From: a virus
DNA length: 21,916 bases
Strand: one strand, 5' to 3'
IMG/VR virus record: IMGVR_UViG_3300015360_000219
Location: 1 to 21,916 of that record
The notes under the pieces were generated by a model. That model was not told the origin of the DNA. It did not search any database and saw only the letters and a program-made list of their open reading frames with translations. This document shows positions 1 through 20,091 of this stretch, one piece after another (position 1 is the stretch's first letter; each line of letters begins with the position of its first letter). The translations under genes were made by a program, and so were the position numbers.

Positions 1-122
1 GCCATGTTGGCGGATTGAACCCGCCGGACGGCGAACGGTCAGCAATCCGCCATGTTGGCGGATTGAACCCGCCGGACGGCGAACGGTCAGCAATCCGCCA
101 TGTTGGCGGATTGAACCCGCCG
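1..122 (+). repeat. Tandem 48-bp palindromic repeat array (about 2.5 units)
   Basis: Two complete and one partial copy of a 48-bp unit begin at 1, 49 and 97. Units 1 and 2 look identical; the third diverges after about 26 bases. Each unit junction holds a perfect inverted repeat with 10-bp arms CAATCCGCCA and TGGCGGATTG around TGT (43-65 and 91-113), and each unit also has a smaller palindrome, CGCCG-GA-CGGCG. Because 48 is a multiple of three, the array stays open in frame and would encode a 16-residue repeat. It sits downstream of the gp36-like gene, and I see no gene in it. A 29-bp core (41-69) occurs again at 19662-19690 inside a phage early gene. It looks like a REP-type element; origin and function are unknown. 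Confidence 0.85.
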
Positions 123-203: not shown

Positions 204-632
204 TCAAATAAATCCCTTCAGCGCTTGTGTTGAAAGCGGGCGCTCGGGATCGGACATGATGACTTCGCCGCCGCCCGATGCGGCCGGTTCGGTTCCGGCC
301 AGGTCGAGCCGGATTTTGCCGTCGGCAATTTCGCGCAGCTGCTTGAGCGCGCTGGCGTAGTCGTCCTTGATCTTGTCGCCGACCGTGTTGGCATGCGCGT
401 AATAGATTGAAACCCGCAATGCCAGGTCCGCCACCAGCTGCGGCGTTGAAGCCAGCGGCAGGCCATATCTTGCGGCCAGATAGCCGTCGATCAGCGCGCC
501 GGCATCGGCAATCGCCCGCGTGACCAGCGCGTCGTCCACCGTGCCGGTCGGGCTGGTGCCGCGATCCGAAACGGCAATGAGCAGCTGCTCCCCGTAGCGC
601 TCGATCATCTGGGCCTTGGTGCAATAGGACAT
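204..632 (-). CDS. DUF1320 family protein (Mu gp36-like)
   Basis: This is a protein of about 142 residues matching the Mu gp36/DUF1320 family, a small protein encoded just after the major head gene in Mu-like phages and thought to act at the head-tail connection. The family hallmarks are visible: an N-terminal YCTKAQMIERYGE stretch, an acidic DD then an AIADAGALIDGYLAARYGLPL-type helix, a central YYAH and a C-terminal IADGKIRL segment. The preferred start is the ATG at 632, which forms a TGATG overlap with the upstream gene; a GTG one codon earlier (635) is the alternative. It is the last recognisable phage gene before the left edge and is followed by the palindromic repeat array. Family assignment is from remembered motifs. 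Confidence 0.85.
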   Translation of the reverse strand: MSYCTKAQMIERYGEQLLIAVSDRGTSPTGTVDDALVTRAIADAGALIDGYLAARYGLPLASTPQLVADLALRVSIYYAHANTVGDKIKDDYASALKQLREIADGKIRLDLAGTEPAASGGGEVIMSDPERPLSTQALKGFI

Positions 633-880
633 CACTCGCGCTCCGGCTTTGTCGCAGCCTTGAGCGCAAACATCACTGCGGTTTCCACATGGGTGATTGC
701 AATCGACTTGAGCCTGCCAATGGCGGAATTGCCGACAATCCCCGGCAGCCGGTCGTTCGGGACGCTCTCGATCATATCGATGAAGCAGGCGGAGAACTGC
801 TTGAGTGCCTCAACCTGGTCGTCGCAGGACGGATCGACCCCGGCACCGACCAGATATTCGCCATAAGTCTGCTGCGGCAT
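632..880 (-). CDS. Small protein resembling the Acb2/Tad1 nucleotide-sponge family
   Basis: This 82-residue protein shows an N-terminal YGEYLVG motif, then PSCDDQVEALK, a hydrophobic helix ending in FIDMIE, and a C-terminal helix IAITHVETAVMFALKAATKP (about 60-79). That layout (G-E-x-x-VG, PS-x-(D/N)-x-x-V-x-x-(I/L)K, then a terminal T-x-x-E-x-A-x-M-x-A-x-KA helix) is what I recall for phage proteins annotated with the Acb2/Tad1 hairpin domain. Acb2 binds cyclic oligonucleotides to block CBASS, and Tad1 binds gcADPR-type signals to block Thoeris. The match is remembered, not computed. A good ribosome site (AAAAGGA) precedes the ATG, which follows the tRNA 3' end by 23 bases. It could instead be an unrelated small head-associated protein. 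Confidence 0.6.
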   Translation of the reverse strand: MPQQTYGEYLVGAGVDPSCDDQVEALKQFSACFIDMIESVPNDRLPGIVGNSAIGRLKSIAITHVETAVMFALKAATKPERE

Positions 881-903
881 CGTCTCGTCCTTTTGTGTTG
901 GTT

Positions 904-978
904 TGGTTGCGGGGGCAGGACTTGGACCTGCGATCTGCTGGGTATGAACCGGCCGGGATGCCTCTTCCCTACCCCGCC
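904..978 (-). tRNA. tRNA with CAU anticodon (Met type), phage-encoded
   Basis: A full cloverleaf folds on the minus strand. The acceptor stem is GGCGGGG against CCCCGCA (six pairs plus a G1:A72 mismatch), the D stem is GGGA/TCCC with a GG-bearing loop, and the five-pair anticodon stem has one C:A mismatch. The seven-base loop TTCATAC carries anticodon CAT at 944-946 between T33 and A37. The T stem is GCAGG/CCTGC with loop TCCAAGT, and A73 plus CCA are encoded. The 3' half closely resembles bacterial initiator tRNA, and the unpaired 1:72 is an initiator hallmark. The three anticodon-stem G:C pairs of initiators are not intact, so initiator, elongator Met or lysidine-modified Ile2 remain open. 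It lies 7 bases after the gp35-like stop, on the late transcript. Confidence 0.85.
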
Positions 979-985
979 GAATTTT

Positions 986-1204
986 TCAGGCTGCCTTGAC
1001 CGTCAGGCCGGGTTCGGCGAGCAGCTCGTCAACCTGGTCCAGCGTTAGCGTGCCTTCCGGGTGAACCACCGTTTCGCCAGGATGAAACATCCCGGCCCGG
1101 CGCATCCCGGCCTTGGCCTTGGCGGTGATTGCCCAGCCGCGCGGTGAGCGGGCTGGATCGGTTTCGGTCACGGTTGAAGGCGTGGTTTTGGAGTGCTTGG
1201 CCAT
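986..1204 (-). CDS. HI1506-related protein (Mu gp35-like)
   Basis: This 72-residue protein matches the short HI1506/Mu gp35-type family found between the major head protein and gp36 in Mu-like phages. The recognisable elements are the central GMRRAGMFHPGETVV segment, comparable to the family pattern of arginine-rich G-x-x-R-A-G, and the C-terminal LTLDQVDELLAEPGLTV, a small helix that usually ends in a L-x-x-DP-x-L motif. The exact role is not established; it is assumed to be a minor head or assembly protein. The gene is separated from the major head gene by a 71-base spacer with a strong stem-loop, and the tRNA begins 7 bases after its stop. Confidence 0.75.
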   Translation of the reverse strand: MAKHSKTTPSTVTETDPARSPRGWAITAKAKAGMRRAGMFHPGETVVHPEGTLTLDQVDELLAEPGLTVKAA

Positions 1205-14789: not shown

Positions 14790-15839
14790 TCACACCTCCA
14801 CATCGCGGTTTGACCACGCAGCTTTCAGGTCCGGCAGCGTCAGCTCGCGCCGCTCTCCGAGCGCGTGGATTTTGGCGAGCTTCACCGTCATTTCGATCTG
14901 GCCCATCGCGCCCGGCTTCATGCCGACACCGACGAGGAAGTCGCTCATCGCTTTGTCGGCAATGCCCCATGCCCGGATATAGGCGACAAGGTCTTCCTTG
15001 CGCGGCGACGTGCGCTGCAGCCGTTTCATGATGCGGCGGCGCAGTTGCGCAAACCTTGTTCCGGCTCCCCACGAGGAGAAACGCGAATAGCTTTCCGAAT
15101 TGCCCAGCATCGCAATGCCGCACTGGAAATTGTCGGTGAAGTGACGCAGCTGGTTGGTCGCTTCGTCGGAAAGGTTCTGCGCCTCGTCGATGATCAGCAG
15201 GGTCGGCGCGTCACGCCGCTGCACCCGCTTGCCGATGGCCGCGACGATGTTGCTGTTGTTGATCGCCGCGCCGTTCAGTACCGTTTCAGCCACCGCCAGC
15301 AGCATGCCGTGCATCTTGCTGGTATGCGGCGAAATCGTCACCAGCCAGCAGTTGCCGTGCTTGGCGACATACTGCCTGGCCGTCGCGGTTTTCCCCATGC
15401 CGGCCTCGGCGCAGATCATCACCATGCCTGGGCTGGTCTGTGCCAACAGCAGCATGTGAGTGATTTCTTCCGAAATCCGCGTCTTGATGAACGGCGGGCT
15501 GACCGGCAGCGCCTCCTCCATTTTGCTCGTCTCGTCCAGCTGGTCGAGGAAGTTGGAGACCTTGGAATTGAGCTCGGCGAGACGACCCGGATACTTGCCG
15601 GAAATCCACTGGTTGAAGGTTGGCTCCTTGATGTCGATGCGCCGCGCCGCTTCGCTTTTGCTCCACTGTTGCTGCTCGGCAATGCTGGCGATCCGGTCCA
15701 CCAGGTCAGCGCGACGGGCGATGTCATCGCCGCTGCGGCCAGGTCCGGGTTCAATCACCGGCGGCGTTTCGGGAAGCGACCAGAATGCCGCCTCATCGGG
15801 CCTTGTGGCATCGGGTCTTGTGGCATTTGCGTGGTTCAT
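14790..15839 (-). CDS. MuB-like transposition target ATPase
   Basis: This 349-residue protein matches the MuB family. An N-terminal helix-turn-helix lies at about residues 58-90 (KSEAARRIDIKEPTFNQWISG), then an AAA+ core with Walker A AEAGMGKT (144-151), Walker B LLIIDEAQ (214-221) and a sensor-like AMLGNSE (243-249), with arginines RRRIMKR at 267-273 as possible fingers. The C-terminal part resembles the MuB domain contacting MuA. MuB coats target DNA in an ATP-dependent manner, delivers it to the MuA transpososome and imparts target immunity. A strong AGGAGA ribosome site is 7 bases upstream. Between it and MuA lies a 109-base gap with a plus-strand terminator. Confidence 0.93.
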   Translation of the reverse strand: MNHANATRPDATRPDEAAFWSLPETPPVIEPGPGRSGDDIARRADLVDRIASIAEQQQWSKSEAARRIDIKEPTFNQWISGKYPGRLAELNSKVSNFLDQLDETSKMEEALPVSPPFIKTRISEEITHMLLLAQTSPGMVMICAEAGMGKTATARQYVAKHGNCWLVTISPHTSKMHGMLLAVAETVLNGAAINNSNIVAAIGKRVQRRDAPTLLIIDEAQNLSDEATNQLRHFTDNFQCGIAMLGNSESYSRFSSWGAGTRFAQLRRRIMKRLQRTSPRKEDLVAYIRAWGIADKAMSDFLVGVGMKPGAMGQIEMTVKLAKIHALGERRELTLPDLKAAWSNRDVEV

Positions 15840-15948: not shown

Positions 15949-17874
15949 TCAGTCTTCGCCGTCCCGCCCGCCCGCGATCAGCCGCAGGCCCTTGGCAAAG
16001 TTGTCTTCATGGCTTTCAGTCCAGGCGTCGGGATTGGCTGCGGCCAATGCCGCCGCCCGGCCTCCCGCGAGCCCTCCCGCCAGCCGCACCACGACCGGGC
16101 GCACCGGCTGGTGCTCTTGCGGCAGCGGGCCTGCGTAAATCCGCGCCAGCTCGTCCGCCGAAAGTTCGGCTTGCATCCGCGCCTGGTCCTTGATGGTTTT
16201 GAGCCAGGCCGCGCGCTTGCGGTTGTGATCGCGCGCTGCGCTGACATCATCAAAACCTGCGTCTTCAATGCGCTGGGCATGGCAGACCAGCCGGTCGCTG
16301 ATGTCGTAGATGTCAACGCCGGCTTCCAGATGATCCGGGTCAAAACGCACCGTCACCCGCTTGCCGGCATGGGCTGACAGGCCGGGCGACCAGTAGCGGT
16401 TGCCAAAAAGCTCGATTTCGCCGCTGCCCTTCTTGGCTCGGATGCTTTCCGCCGCCAGCAGCCAGAGCGACCGCTGTGCCTTGCTTGCCCAGCGAACGAT
16501 GGTGCCTGGTGCGGCGAGACTGGCCGCGAAGGCGGCATCGAAGCTGCGGCCTTTGGCATTGGCGGCGCGCCGGCCGGGCCGGGCGTTGTGTTCGGCAATT
16601 CCGGCCGCTACCAGATGCCGGAATTCTTCCATGGGAATAGCCGCATTGCCGTAGTTTTCCGGCTTGGCATCCGGGCGATTGCCGGTATAGGCACCGGCAC
16701 AGGCCGGGTGGCGCGAAATATTTTCCGCAAGATCGCGCCATGCCCGCTCTATCGGCTTTGACTGGCCGCTATACGGCGTCGTCCAGATGATCTCGACGCG
16801 CAGCGTGGTCAACAGGCCCTGCGGGTCTTCGTCTCTTATCTTGAAGCGGAAGCGCCGTGCCGCCCCGCCGGTGATCCATTTGCTGGCAAACGCCCGGCCG
16901 TTGTCGAGGAAGATTTTTTCCGGGATGCCGAAGCGTTCGACCATGTCGCCGATCACCAGTCGCACGGTCTCCTTGTTCTCGGTTTCCGCAAGTCTCCATG
17001 CAACGATCTTGCCAGAAAAAAGGTCCTGGATGCCGACCAGAACGGGCCGGCCGATCCGCCCGTCCGGCCAGCGGCAGAACACATCAAATTTGTGTCCGTC
17101 CGTGTTGCAGGCCTGCATCGCAGTCAAATGGCTGCGGTCGCGCCGCTGTGCTGGGTAAAGCCCCTTGGAAACATCGCGGCGCTGGCGCGCCATCACCGCA
17201 ACACCGGCAGGAATTTCCGCTTCGATCCGCCGCCGCAGCGCCCGCTCCGATGGCACCGGCACCCAGCCGCACCGCCTCGCCGCCGCCGCCATCCGGCGAT
17301 AGCAGGAGGCAAAGCAGGGCGCTTCATCGCGCAGCCAGTCAGACTTGAAAACCTTCAGTGCTTGCGGGTGGCAGGCGGCAAAGCCGTCGCGGCCCTTGTG
17401 ACGCGGGGCCAGTGCCGCCAGCCGGTCCTGCCGGGCGTGGCCGCTGGCCAGTTCCTGCCAGTTGTACAGCGTCGCCGTGCTCACCCCGGCCTCGCGGGCG
17501 GCAATGGCAACAGCGGCGCTGGCCTGGCTGCCGGCATCTTGCAATTCCACCACCCTGTCGAGCGTCTTCAAACGCGCCTTGCAGGTGTCTTTCTGGCGAT
17601 TTGAGAGCCGGTTATAGCCGTCCCACAAGGCCTCTGCCGCCGGCTTTGCCGGCGGGCTGTCCGGACCGTGCGCCAGTGTCAACCGTGCCTGCACGTCGTC
17701 CGGCAGCAGCGAGAAATGATATTCTCGGCCGCCGCCGCGCCCCTCGGCCTTGCGCGCTGTCTCGCCCGCCCGCCAGCCTTGGCGTTGTGCGTGACGGTTG
17801 ATGCCGCGCACGCTGCCCGGCAGCGTGCCGCCGGCACAGGCGGCAATTTCGCCTGGGGAAAACCATTGCTTCAT
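15949..17874 (-). CDS. MuA-like DDE transposase
   Basis: This 641-residue protein is the phage transposase, with both integration and replicative transposition activity. The N-terminus (WFSPGEIAACAGGTLPGSVRGIN) is the MuA enhancer-type winged helix, followed by end-binding HTH domains with ATLYNWQEL. The catalytic RNase H-like core has D259 (ACNTDGHKFDVF), D324 (IFLDNGRAFASK) and E376 (QSKPIERAWRD), with 65 and 52 residue spacing close to Mu (269/336/392). A beta domain (FGNRYWSPGL, VTVRFDP) and helical C-terminus follow. The start at 17874 overlaps the upstream stop as ATGA; an 18-residue longer frame is less likely. All catalytic residues are present, so it appears intact. Confidence 0.96.
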   Translation of the reverse strand: MKQWFSPGEIAACAGGTLPGSVRGINRHAQRQGWRAGETARKAEGRGGGREYHFSLLPDDVQARLTLAHGPDSPPAKPAAEALWDGYNRLSNRQKDTCKARLKTLDRVVELQDAGSQASAAVAIAAREAGVSTATLYNWQELASGHARQDRLAALAPRHKGRDGFAACHPQALKVFKSDWLRDEAPCFASCYRRMAAAARRCGWVPVPSERALRRRIEAEIPAGVAVMARQRRDVSKGLYPAQRRDRSHLTAMQACNTDGHKFDVFCRWPDGRIGRPVLVGIQDLFSGKIVAWRLAETENKETVRLVIGDMVERFGIPEKIFLDNGRAFASKWITGGAARRFRFKIRDEDPQGLLTTLRVEIIWTTPYSGQSKPIERAWRDLAENISRHPACAGAYTGNRPDAKPENYGNAAIPMEEFRHLVAAGIAEHNARPGRRAANAKGRSFDAAFAASLAAPGTIVRWASKAQRSLWLLAAESIRAKKGSGEIELFGNRYWSPGLSAHAGKRVTVRFDPDHLEAGVDIYDISDRLVCHAQRIEDAGFDDVSAARDHNRKRAAWLKTIKDQARMQAELSADELARIYAGPLPQEHQPVRPVVVRLAGGLAGGRAAALAAANPDAWTESHEDNFAKGLRLIAGGRDGED

Positions 17875-18083
17875 TGCGCGGCTTCCTTGACCGCTGCCTC
17901 GATCACGGCTTGATGCCGTGCCACCCACCGCAGGGTTGCCAGCACCGCCTCCATCCGGGCGATCAGCACGTCGGCTTCGCTGCGCCGCATATTGCCTGCC
18001 GAAATTAGCCGGCCATAAACGAAGTGCCGCTTGGCGATTTCCGCTTCGGCCTCGCTGATTTGTTGTTCGATGCTGATTTTCAT
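17871..18083 (-). CDS. Small helical early protein upstream of MuA
   Basis: This 70-residue protein (MKISIEQQISEAEAEIAKRHF...) has a highly charged coiled-coil-like N-terminus and an amphipathic helix (EADVLIARMEAVLATL) near the end. No family is recognised by eye. The preferred ATG at 18083 overlaps the previous stop as TGATG; a GTG at 18086 is the alternative. Tight linkage to MuA and conserved spacing suggest that it is expressed with the transposase. It may be a small transposition or regulatory helper, although nothing in the sequence proves this. Confidence 0.65.
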   Translation of the reverse strand: MKISIEQQISEAEAEIAKRHFVYGRLISAGNMRRSEADVLIARMEAVLATLRWVARHQAVIEAAVKEAAQ

Positions 18084-18985: not shown

Positions 18986-19238
18986 GGCCGTGCTCCAGGC
19001 TGTGCAGGAAGCCGTCCAGGTCTTCTGGCGACCAGTTCCGTGATGCCTGCTCTCGCTGGGCCGGCGTCATCACACGCCGGGTGATCGCCGCGCTTTCGCC
19101 CGCCCGTTTGATCGCTTCCCGCGCCACCCTCCCGGCGCGGCTTCGGGCTGCAATCCTGCCGGTTTCAAAAACCGCCATCGCCAGCAGCAGAACCGCCAGC
19201 CAGAACAACGCCACGCCATAGCTTCCAAGGTCAGCCAT
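18975..19238 (-). CDS. Single-pass early membrane protein
   Basis: This 87-residue protein has one strong N-terminal transmembrane helix (about residues 8-27, GVALFWLAVLLLAMAVFETG), then a basic cytoplasmic tail (RIAARSRAGRVAREAIKR) and a hydrophilic C-terminus ending in LHSLEHGHEQ. The topology is probably N-out with the tail in the cytoplasm by the positive-inside rule. No family is recognised. Its start overlaps the ParB-like stop by 8 bases. It might serve in superinfection exclusion or membrane takeover, both speculative. Confidence 0.65.
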   Translation of the reverse strand: MADLGSYGVALFWLAVLLLAMAVFETGRIAARSRAGRVAREAIKRAGESAAITRRVMTPAQREQASRNWSPEDLDGFLHSLEHGHEQ

Positions 19239-20091
19239 CGGTCTCCCTTTCGATCTCTGTCAGCAGTTCGCGGACCTCGTCCGCATGGATGCGCAGCCAG
19301 TCCTTGCGCGCGTTTTTTCCGGCCCGTGACCAAATGGACACCAGCCGTTCTGCGCTCTTGGCGCTGGCGCTGGTTGGGATTGCCGGAAACAGGATTGCCT
19401 CGGCGCGGGCAACGTCGCCCTTCGCAGTGCCGGCCAGCAGTTTTGCCAGCTTGGCCTGGTCTTCTGCGGTGTAGCGGGAAACCCGCTCGATGGCCGACTG
19501 GTTGTCTTCTGCGCTCGAGTTTGTCAGCGCCGCCGCCAGGGCAAGGTGCAGGTTGCGGGCAATGGTGCAAAGCCGTTCGGCTGTGCGTAGTGAAAGACCA
19601 AACCGCTCGGCGGCGCGGGCATAAAACCGCCCTTGCTCGCTGTCTTCTGCAACGCCGAGCAGGTTCAATCCGCCAACATGGCGGATTGCTCTCTGGTAAC
19701 CGCCACGCTGCACTTTTCCGGCTTTGGCCTCGAACAGTTTGCGCCACTCACTGACCGCGATGATCTTCTCCAGCGCTGACAGCTCGTTGCGAAACAGGTT
19801 TTCCTCGATCTCCTCTTCGCGGGCCGCATCGGCATCGGCCTTGACGATTTCGCAAAGGATTGTTTCCCGTCCGGCCATCCCGTGCGCTTCCAGCCGGTGC
19901 GCGCCGGAAACCAGCAGGAACGTGCTTGTCCCGTTCGGCGTGCGCCGCACCTTGATCGGCGGCAGGCTTTTGCCGTTAAGCAGCATTGCTGCATACAGCG
20001 AAGCGAAGTCAGCCTTGACCGGCCGCAGCCGGTTTGCCGCGACGCCGATTTCCGCGACCTTCAATAATTGCGGGAGTTCCAGCTTGCTCAT
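19231..20091 (-). CDS. ParB/Srx-like nuclease-domain protein carrying an in-frame palindromic element
   Basis: This 286-residue protein has the ParB N-terminal fold: L-x-x-L-x-x-V at the start, then FLLVSGAHRLEAHGMAG (59-74, the G-x-HR-x-EA box) and EENLFRNELSALEKI (96-110, the ENL-x-R-x-x-LS box). Next come a helical HTH half (AAERFGLSLRTAERLCTIARNLH) and a C-terminal tail. Mu-like phages of this bacterial group often carry such a gene early in the operon, where it may bind or cut DNA; ParB-fold proteins bind CTP. Residues 134-143 (RAIRHVGGLN) are encoded by the 29-bp repeat core found at the left window edge. The start overlaps the upstream stop as ATGA. Confidence 0.85.
   Translation of the reverse strand: MSKLELPQLLKVAEIGVAANRLRPVKADFASLYAAMLLNGKSLPPIKVRRTPNGTSTFLLVSGAHRLEAHGMAGRETILCEIVKADADAAREEEIEENLFRNELSALEKIIAVSEWRKLFEAKAGKVQRGGYQRAIRHVGGLNLLGVAEDSEQGRFYARAAERFGLSLRTAERLCTIARNLHLALAAALTNSSAEDNQSAIERVSRYTAEDQAKLAKLLAGTAKGDVARAEAILFPAIPTSASAKSAERLVSIWSRAGKNARKDWLRIHADEVRELLTEIERETDG
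19662..19690 (-). repeat. Copy of the palindromic element inside the ParB-like gene
   Basis: These 29 bases match the core of the left-edge repeats (41-69 and 89-117) exactly, in reverse orientation on the plus strand, so the coding strand of the ParB-like gene carries the same sequence as the plus strand at the left. The perfect hairpin is at 19666-19688. It stays in frame and codes RAIRHVGGLN within a variable linker between the nuclease and HTH parts. Flanking bases do not match, so only the core is shared. Confidence 0.9.

What the first reader, a model, noticed from the sequence alone, without database searches (positions are those of the whole stretch)
632..880. Candidate anti-defence nucleotide sponge (Acb2/Tad1-like) inside the head operon
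Seen: an 82-residue protein with YGEYLVG, a PS-x-DDQVEALK block and a terminal helix ending ETAVMFALKAATKP. Known: this layout is what I recall for phage proteins carrying the Acb2/Tad1 hairpin domain; Acb2 sequesters CBASS cyclic nucleotides and Tad1 sequesters Thoeris signals. Inferred: this phage may carry such an inhibitor in its late structural operon, next to a tRNA, as paired cargo.
Basis: partly seen in the sequence, partly recalled or inferred. Interest (0 to 1): 0.72.

Follow-up and report, generated by a model that had tools for sequence, protein, structure and literature searches.

The report
Acb2-like nucleotide sponge in Mu-like phage
A small gene in the capsid operon of a Mu-like bacterial virus almost certainly belongs to the known family of 'sponge' proteins that soak up bacterial alarm molecules, though it is a divergent member with one altered pocket residue, and its activity has not been tested.

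Summary
The ORF is real but lies on the minus strand (880→632, 82 aa, good Shine-Dalgarno), in the head operon of a Mu-like phage: gpT, FluMu_N, tRNA-Met, this gene, Gp36. It matches Pfam PF24729 (Acb2/Tad1 hairpin) at 36.5 bits against a cut-off of 27. A profile of its relatives finds Pseudomonas-phage Acb2, T4 Vs.4/Acb2 and Tad1 in the PDB. AlphaFold2 (pLDDT 90) gives Acb2's short helix plus helical hairpin; the best VIA-align match is T4 Acb2. It belongs to a large, hardly characterised 'GEYRVG-x-FNPS' subfamily (>500 viral contigs), not to Acb2 proper and not to Tad1. K27, R56 and T63, equivalent to Acb2 K26, R67 and T74, are kept. The aromatic aligned with Acb2's cGAMP-stacking Tyr is Val here (1 of 53), so cyclic-dinucleotide binding may be weak; a cyclic-trinucleotide sponge is my best guess. 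Pairing with the tRNA is not supported: in 138 related phages the two co-occur only here. Related Mu-like phages carry sponge-type genes sporadically, at this slot or 7-9 kb upstream, which fits accessory counter-defence cargo. New member of a known kind; function inferred.

The parts
632..880 (-). Acb2/Tad1-hairpin protein, 82 aa: short N-terminal helix 6-11, helices 21-38 and 51-77
   Evidence: PF24729 36.5 bits; AlphaFold2 pLDDT 90.2; T4 Acb2 best VIA-align row, Z 7.2
881..910 (-). ribosome-binding region, AAAGGA upstream of the ATG
   Evidence: sequence
904..978 (-). tRNA-Met (CAT), CCA encoded; independent occupant of the same variable slot
   Evidence: ARAGORN; tRNA-like genes in 15 of 138 related intervals
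986..1204 (-). FluMu N-terminal-domain head-operon protein (gp35-like)
   Evidence: PF17891
1276..2175 (-). Mu-like major head subunit gpT
   Evidence: PF10124, 417.8 bits
204..635 (-). Gp36 / head-tail adaptor, start overlaps the sponge gene's stop
   Evidence: PF07030 122.3 bits, phrog_195

Best explanation
The gene encodes a short, hairpin-only sponge of the Acb2/Tad1 family. Shown by computation: family membership, Acb2-like monomer fold, conservation of K27/R56/T63, position in the head operon two protein genes after the major capsid gene. Inferred: it assembles into a ring (hexamer, as Acb2 does) and holds cyclic oligonucleotide alarm signals of host defence (CBASS, perhaps type III CRISPR) without cutting them, so effectors are not activated and the phage can finish assembly. 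Because the Arg/Thr pair that I recall as lining the cyclic-trinucleotide site is kept, while the aromatic aligned with the cyclic-dinucleotide-stacking Tyr is Val, cA3/cAAG-type rings are the more likely ligands. Making it with the capsid proteins puts the sponge where it is needed, since capsid proteins are implicated in setting off CBASS and Thoeris.
For: PF24729 hit above the gathering score; relatives of the same subfamily score 37-54 bits. Profile A1 finds PaMx33-type Acb2 8h2j (6.7e-13), T4 Vs.4 7uq2 (1e-8) and Tad1 7uav (3e-5); profile A2 finds 'Acb2 homolog 43', 9ptq. AlphaFold2 model, pLDDT 90.2, short helix plus two long helices; VIA-align best row is T4 Acb2-cGAMP (Z 7.2), PaMx33 Acb2 Z 5.8; BFVD best row an 'Acb2/Tad1 hairpin domain-containing protein', TM 0.90, E 3.4e-5. 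K27 and R56 are invariant in 53 homologues, T63 in 49. Presence among related Mu-like phages is sporadic and at two positions, as for cargo. Literature: T4 Acb2 Y8A and F82C lose Panoptes activation and T68M weakens binding (PMC12657218, PMC12657230); capsid mutations let acb2-deleted phage escape CBASS (PMC10419184) and ThsB1 binds a major head protein (PMC12043709).
Against: Foldseek PDB E-values are weak (best 1.3) and the Z of 7.2 is within what helical hairpins can reach by chance. Identity to characterised Acb2 is low (18-22%). The (F/Y)NPS aromatic is Val here, alone among 53, and the protein has the longest branch of its group. No subfamily member was found to have been tested biochemically. 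No host is known, so no cognate defence system can be named.
Confidence: 0.72

Rival explanations
1. A broad sponge that still takes cyclic dinucleotides and/or gcADPR: another aromatic (Y6, Y9 or F71) replaces the lost one in the pocket.
For: Y9 of GEY is kept in 38 of 53 homologues and F71 lies in the C-terminal helix; K27 is invariant.
Against: The position aligned with Acb2 Y11/T4 Y8 is Val here; T4 Y8A is reported as binding-deficient (PMC12657230).
Confidence: 0.35
2. A decayed or neofunctionalised hairpin protein, still folded but no longer binding nucleotides.
For: Longest branch of its group (1.69 against a median of 0.33); the aromatic is lost.
Against: ORF intact with a good ribosome-binding site; K27, R56, T63, E66 and M70 all kept.
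Confidence: 0.15
3. A morphogenesis protein of the head (assembly or connector factor) that happens to be a helical hairpin.
For: It lies between head genes; two annotated relatives lie next to terminase genes.
Against: Found in only 7 of 138 gpT-gp36 intervals, so not needed for the head; no Pfam or PHROG structural family above threshold.
Confidence: 0.08

Closest known systems
Acb2 (PaMx33-type p26, PDB 8h2j; T4 Vs.4, PDB 7uq2)
   Same: Same Pfam hairpin domain, size (82 vs ~90 aa), short N-terminal helix plus two long antiparallel helices, K26/R67/T74 equivalents of the PaMx33 protein, C-terminal (K/Q)P
   Different: No GY motif: GEYLVG-AG-VDPS instead; Val at the aromatic position; separate branch of the tree
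GEYRVG-x-FNPS subfamily of PF24729 (L167 Defluviimonas Mu prophage; >500 viral contigs; Flavobacterium phage FCL-2 hypothetical protein)
   Same: 38-50% identity over the full length with the group members aligned, same motif layout, ends in KAATKP
   Different: Consensus F-N-P-S and MWAVKAA; the window has V-D-P-S and MFALKAA
Tad1 (PDB 7uav)
   Same: C-terminal hairpin with the R-x6-T-x2-E motif, LTHVEEA against ITHVETA
   Different: The N-terminal beta-sheet domain of Tad1 is absent; no strands in the model
Acb2 homolog 43 (PDB 9ptq, 76 aa)
   Same: Short hairpin-only layout; REKS..KT..EEA.FFATKAA; best PDB hit of the subfamily profile, E 0.001
   Different: Only about 49 residues align; no paper on it was found in the library

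Membership tests
Acb2/Tad1 hairpin domain (PF24729) | profile score above the curated gathering threshold | tested here: met
   36.5 bits against 27
Acb2/Tad1 hairpin domain (PF24729) | helical hairpin, second helix bearing the conserved Arg near its start | tested here: met
   AlphaFold2 helices 21-38 and 51-77, pLDDT 90.2; R56 invariant
Acb2 (anti-CBASS 2) proper | short N-terminal helix plus two long antiparallel helices | tested here: met
   H6-11, H21-38, H51-77; best VIA-align row 7uq2, Z 7.2, though a Z of this size is not decisive for a helical hairpin
Acb2 (anti-CBASS 2) proper | GY motif with the cGAMP-stacking Tyr (PaMx33 Y11, T4 Y8) | tested here: not met
   Aligned residue is V15
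Acb2 (anti-CBASS 2) proper | Lys of the dinucleotide pocket (PaMx33 K26; role from own knowledge) | tested here: met
   K27, invariant in 53 of 53
Acb2 (anti-CBASS 2) proper | Arg/Thr of the trinucleotide site (PaMx33 R67, T74; role from own knowledge) | tested here: met
   R56 53/53, T63 49/53
Acb2 (anti-CBASS 2) proper | groups with Acb2 in a family tree | tested here: not met
   Acb2 proper forms a separate supported clade (96/88); the window joins the GEYRVG group, weakly (91/69)
Acb2 (anti-CBASS 2) proper | homohexamer that binds cyclic oligonucleotides | not testable with these tools
   needs purified protein; only monomers can be modelled here
Tad1 | N-terminal beta-sheet domain before the hairpin | tested here: not met
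   82 aa, no strands in the model
Mu head structural protein | match to a structural family, near-universal presence in the operon | tested here: not met
   no structural Pfam/PHROG match; 7 of 138 intervals

The most novel reading that the evidence does not exclude
The GEYRVG/NPS subfamily, very widespread and strongly conserved in environmental phages, is a functionally distinct sponge clade with its own pocket and perhaps its own, not yet recognised, signal nucleotide; the window protein is a specificity-shifted member of it, made together with the capsid that triggers the alarm.
Probability: 0.2. Interest if true: 0.6.

Novelty: new member of a known kind. Interest (0 to 1): 0.35.

Why it matters
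It adds a counter-defence gene to the head operon of alphaproteobacterial-type Mu-like phages. It also points to a large, conserved, apparently untested subfamily of hairpin sponges whose ligand could be determined with standard native-gel and ITC assays.

Tried and rejected
phmmer of the single sequence against the PDB gave only chance hits, esterases at E 0.02. The single-sequence scan of viral contigs found nothing, and tblastn in phages only a weak Providencia hit; relatives came through gpT synteny and then through L167. NCBIfam and PADLOC hold no model for it. PHROG hits were to families of unknown function (phrog_717 and phrog_1454). Tad1 membership rejected: no beta domain. Structural head protein rejected: sporadic presence. 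tRNA pairing rejected: overlap no greater than chance. The primary Acb2 papers (Cell 2023, Mol Cell 2024, Nature 2024) are not in the library, so the roles of K26, R67 and T74 rest on my own knowledge. A scan of 385 class-mates of the Defluviimonas genome found only the known relative.

Full report
What is there. The window is a 21.9-kb record of a Mu-like transposable phage: MuA-type transposase at 15949-17928, MuB at 14790-15839, lysozyme, Gp27, large terminase, portal, Mu F, and the head genes, all on the minus strand. The finding's ORF is real, on the minus strand, 82 aa, preceded by AAAGGA, and its stop overlaps the GTG start of gp36. The order of transcription is gpT major head, FluMu_N protein, tRNA-Met, this gene, Gp36.

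Family. The protein hits one Pfam family only, PF24729 Acb2/Tad1 hairpin, with 36.5 bits against a gathering score of 27. No structural PHROG matched, only families of unknown function. Single-sequence searches found nothing convincing, so relatives were sought through the neighbouring gpT gene: 80 viral and 80 genome loci. PF24729 was found over the cut-off in 7 of 50 related viral records and 14 of 49 host genomes; hits in the genomes need not lie in the Mu-like prophage. The closest is a protein of a Mu-like prophage of Defluviimonas denitrificans (L167/L179): 'MTKGEYRVGVTFNPSGDDQVAEIK...GRLKALAQTATEEAAMWAVKAATKP', 44-46% identical. In annotated phages it is a 'hypothetical protein', e.g. 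in Flavobacterium columnare phages; in two others it lies next to terminase genes.

Link to characterised sponges. A profile of 18 hairpin proteins finds Pseudomonas-phage Acb2 (8h2j, E 6.7e-13), T4 Vs.4 (7uq2, 1e-8) and Tad1 (7uav, 3e-5). A profile of the window's closer group finds a short solved 'Acb2 homolog 43' (9ptq, E 0.001). AlphaFold2 on a 53-sequence alignment gives pLDDT 90.2 and helices 6-11, 21-38 and 51-77, which is the published Acb2 layout of one short N-terminal and two long antiparallel helices (PMC12043709, PMC10419184). The top VIA-align row is T4 Acb2 with cGAMP, Z 7.2 over 67 residues, with PaMx33 Acb2 at 5.8; the best viral model is an Acb2/Tad1 hairpin protein at TM 0.90. 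Foldseek E-values against the PDB are weak, and helical hairpins match many things, so the structure supports the sequence evidence rather than replacing it.

Pocket. Numbering of the PaMx33 chain puts Y11, K26, R67 and T74 at the GY motif, the first long helix and the R-x6-T motif. The window keeps K27, R56 and T63. Across 53 homologues K27, R56 and M70 are invariant and T63 and E66 are above 90%. T4 Acb2 Y8A is binding-deficient, T68M lowers binding, and F82 stacks on the base (PMC12657218, PMC12657230); by the numbering, T68 corresponds to window T63. The position aligned with the stacking Tyr is F in 41, Y in 8 and L in 3 homologues, and V only in the window. That R67/T74 line the trinucleotide site and Y11/K26 the dinucleotide site is from my own knowledge; the primary papers were not available. 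Hence the inference that this protein is more likely a trinucleotide sponge, with dinucleotide binding doubtful.

Place in the family. The tree puts Acb2 proper (including T4 and PaMx33 proteins and several alphaproteobacterial Mu-phage proteins) in a separate supported clade (96/88). The window sits in the GEYRVG group (91/69, weak) on the longest branch of that group; few columns and several long branches limit the tree. So it works like Acb2 in all likelihood, but should not be called an Acb2 orthologue, and it lacks the beta-sheet domain that marks Tad1.

Cargo behaviour. The gpT-gp36 interval varies from about 200 to 1,850 bp among 138 related loci. Seven of them, the window included, carry a hairpin gene there, of three different kinds (Acb2 proper in L040, L073, L079/L113, L094; another kind in L136; the GEYRVG kind in the window); L079 and L113 are identical. 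Five other related phage records carry one 7-9 kb upstream of gpT. Fifteen intervals hold a tRNA or tRNA-like gene, but only the window holds both, against 0.76 expected, so the two are independent occupants. Sporadic presence, changing kind and changing position fit accessory counter-defence genes and argue against a head-building role.

Mechanism. Shown: membership, predicted fold, conserved residues, operon position. Inferred: hexameric ring, sequestration of cyclic oligonucleotides without cleavage, protection from CBASS-type death. The link of capsid proteins to CBASS and Thoeris activation (PMC10419184, PMC12043709) gives a reason why co-production with the capsid could be useful; that is an interpretation.

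Verdict. It is a new member of a known kind.

Noticed in passing
window 904-978 (-); intervals of L036, L057, L064, L077, L097/L037, L104, L130 and others: A tRNA-Met(CAT) or tRNA-like gene recurs between gpT and gp36 in 15 of 138 related Mu-like loci, several with enlarged loops and four-base anticodons called by ARAGORN (catc, cgtc, gatc). The copies share a GCGGGGT.GCGCAG-like 5' part, so they look like one family of phage tRNAs living in the head operon.
   Followed up: partly
window 44-68, 92-116 (+) and 19663-19687 (-): An exact 25-base palindromic repeat (AATCCGCCATGTTGGCGGATTGAAC; 0 expected by chance) occurs twice at the window start and once inside a ParB-like ORF (19231-20091), which stays open across it. 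It looks like a REP-like element inserted in a coding gene.
   Followed up: partly
L163, L164, L165, L166, L167: Related Mu-like phages carry Acb2-type genes at a second position, 7-9 kb upstream of gpT, so two cargo slots exist in these phages.
   Followed up: partly
   Followed up: partly
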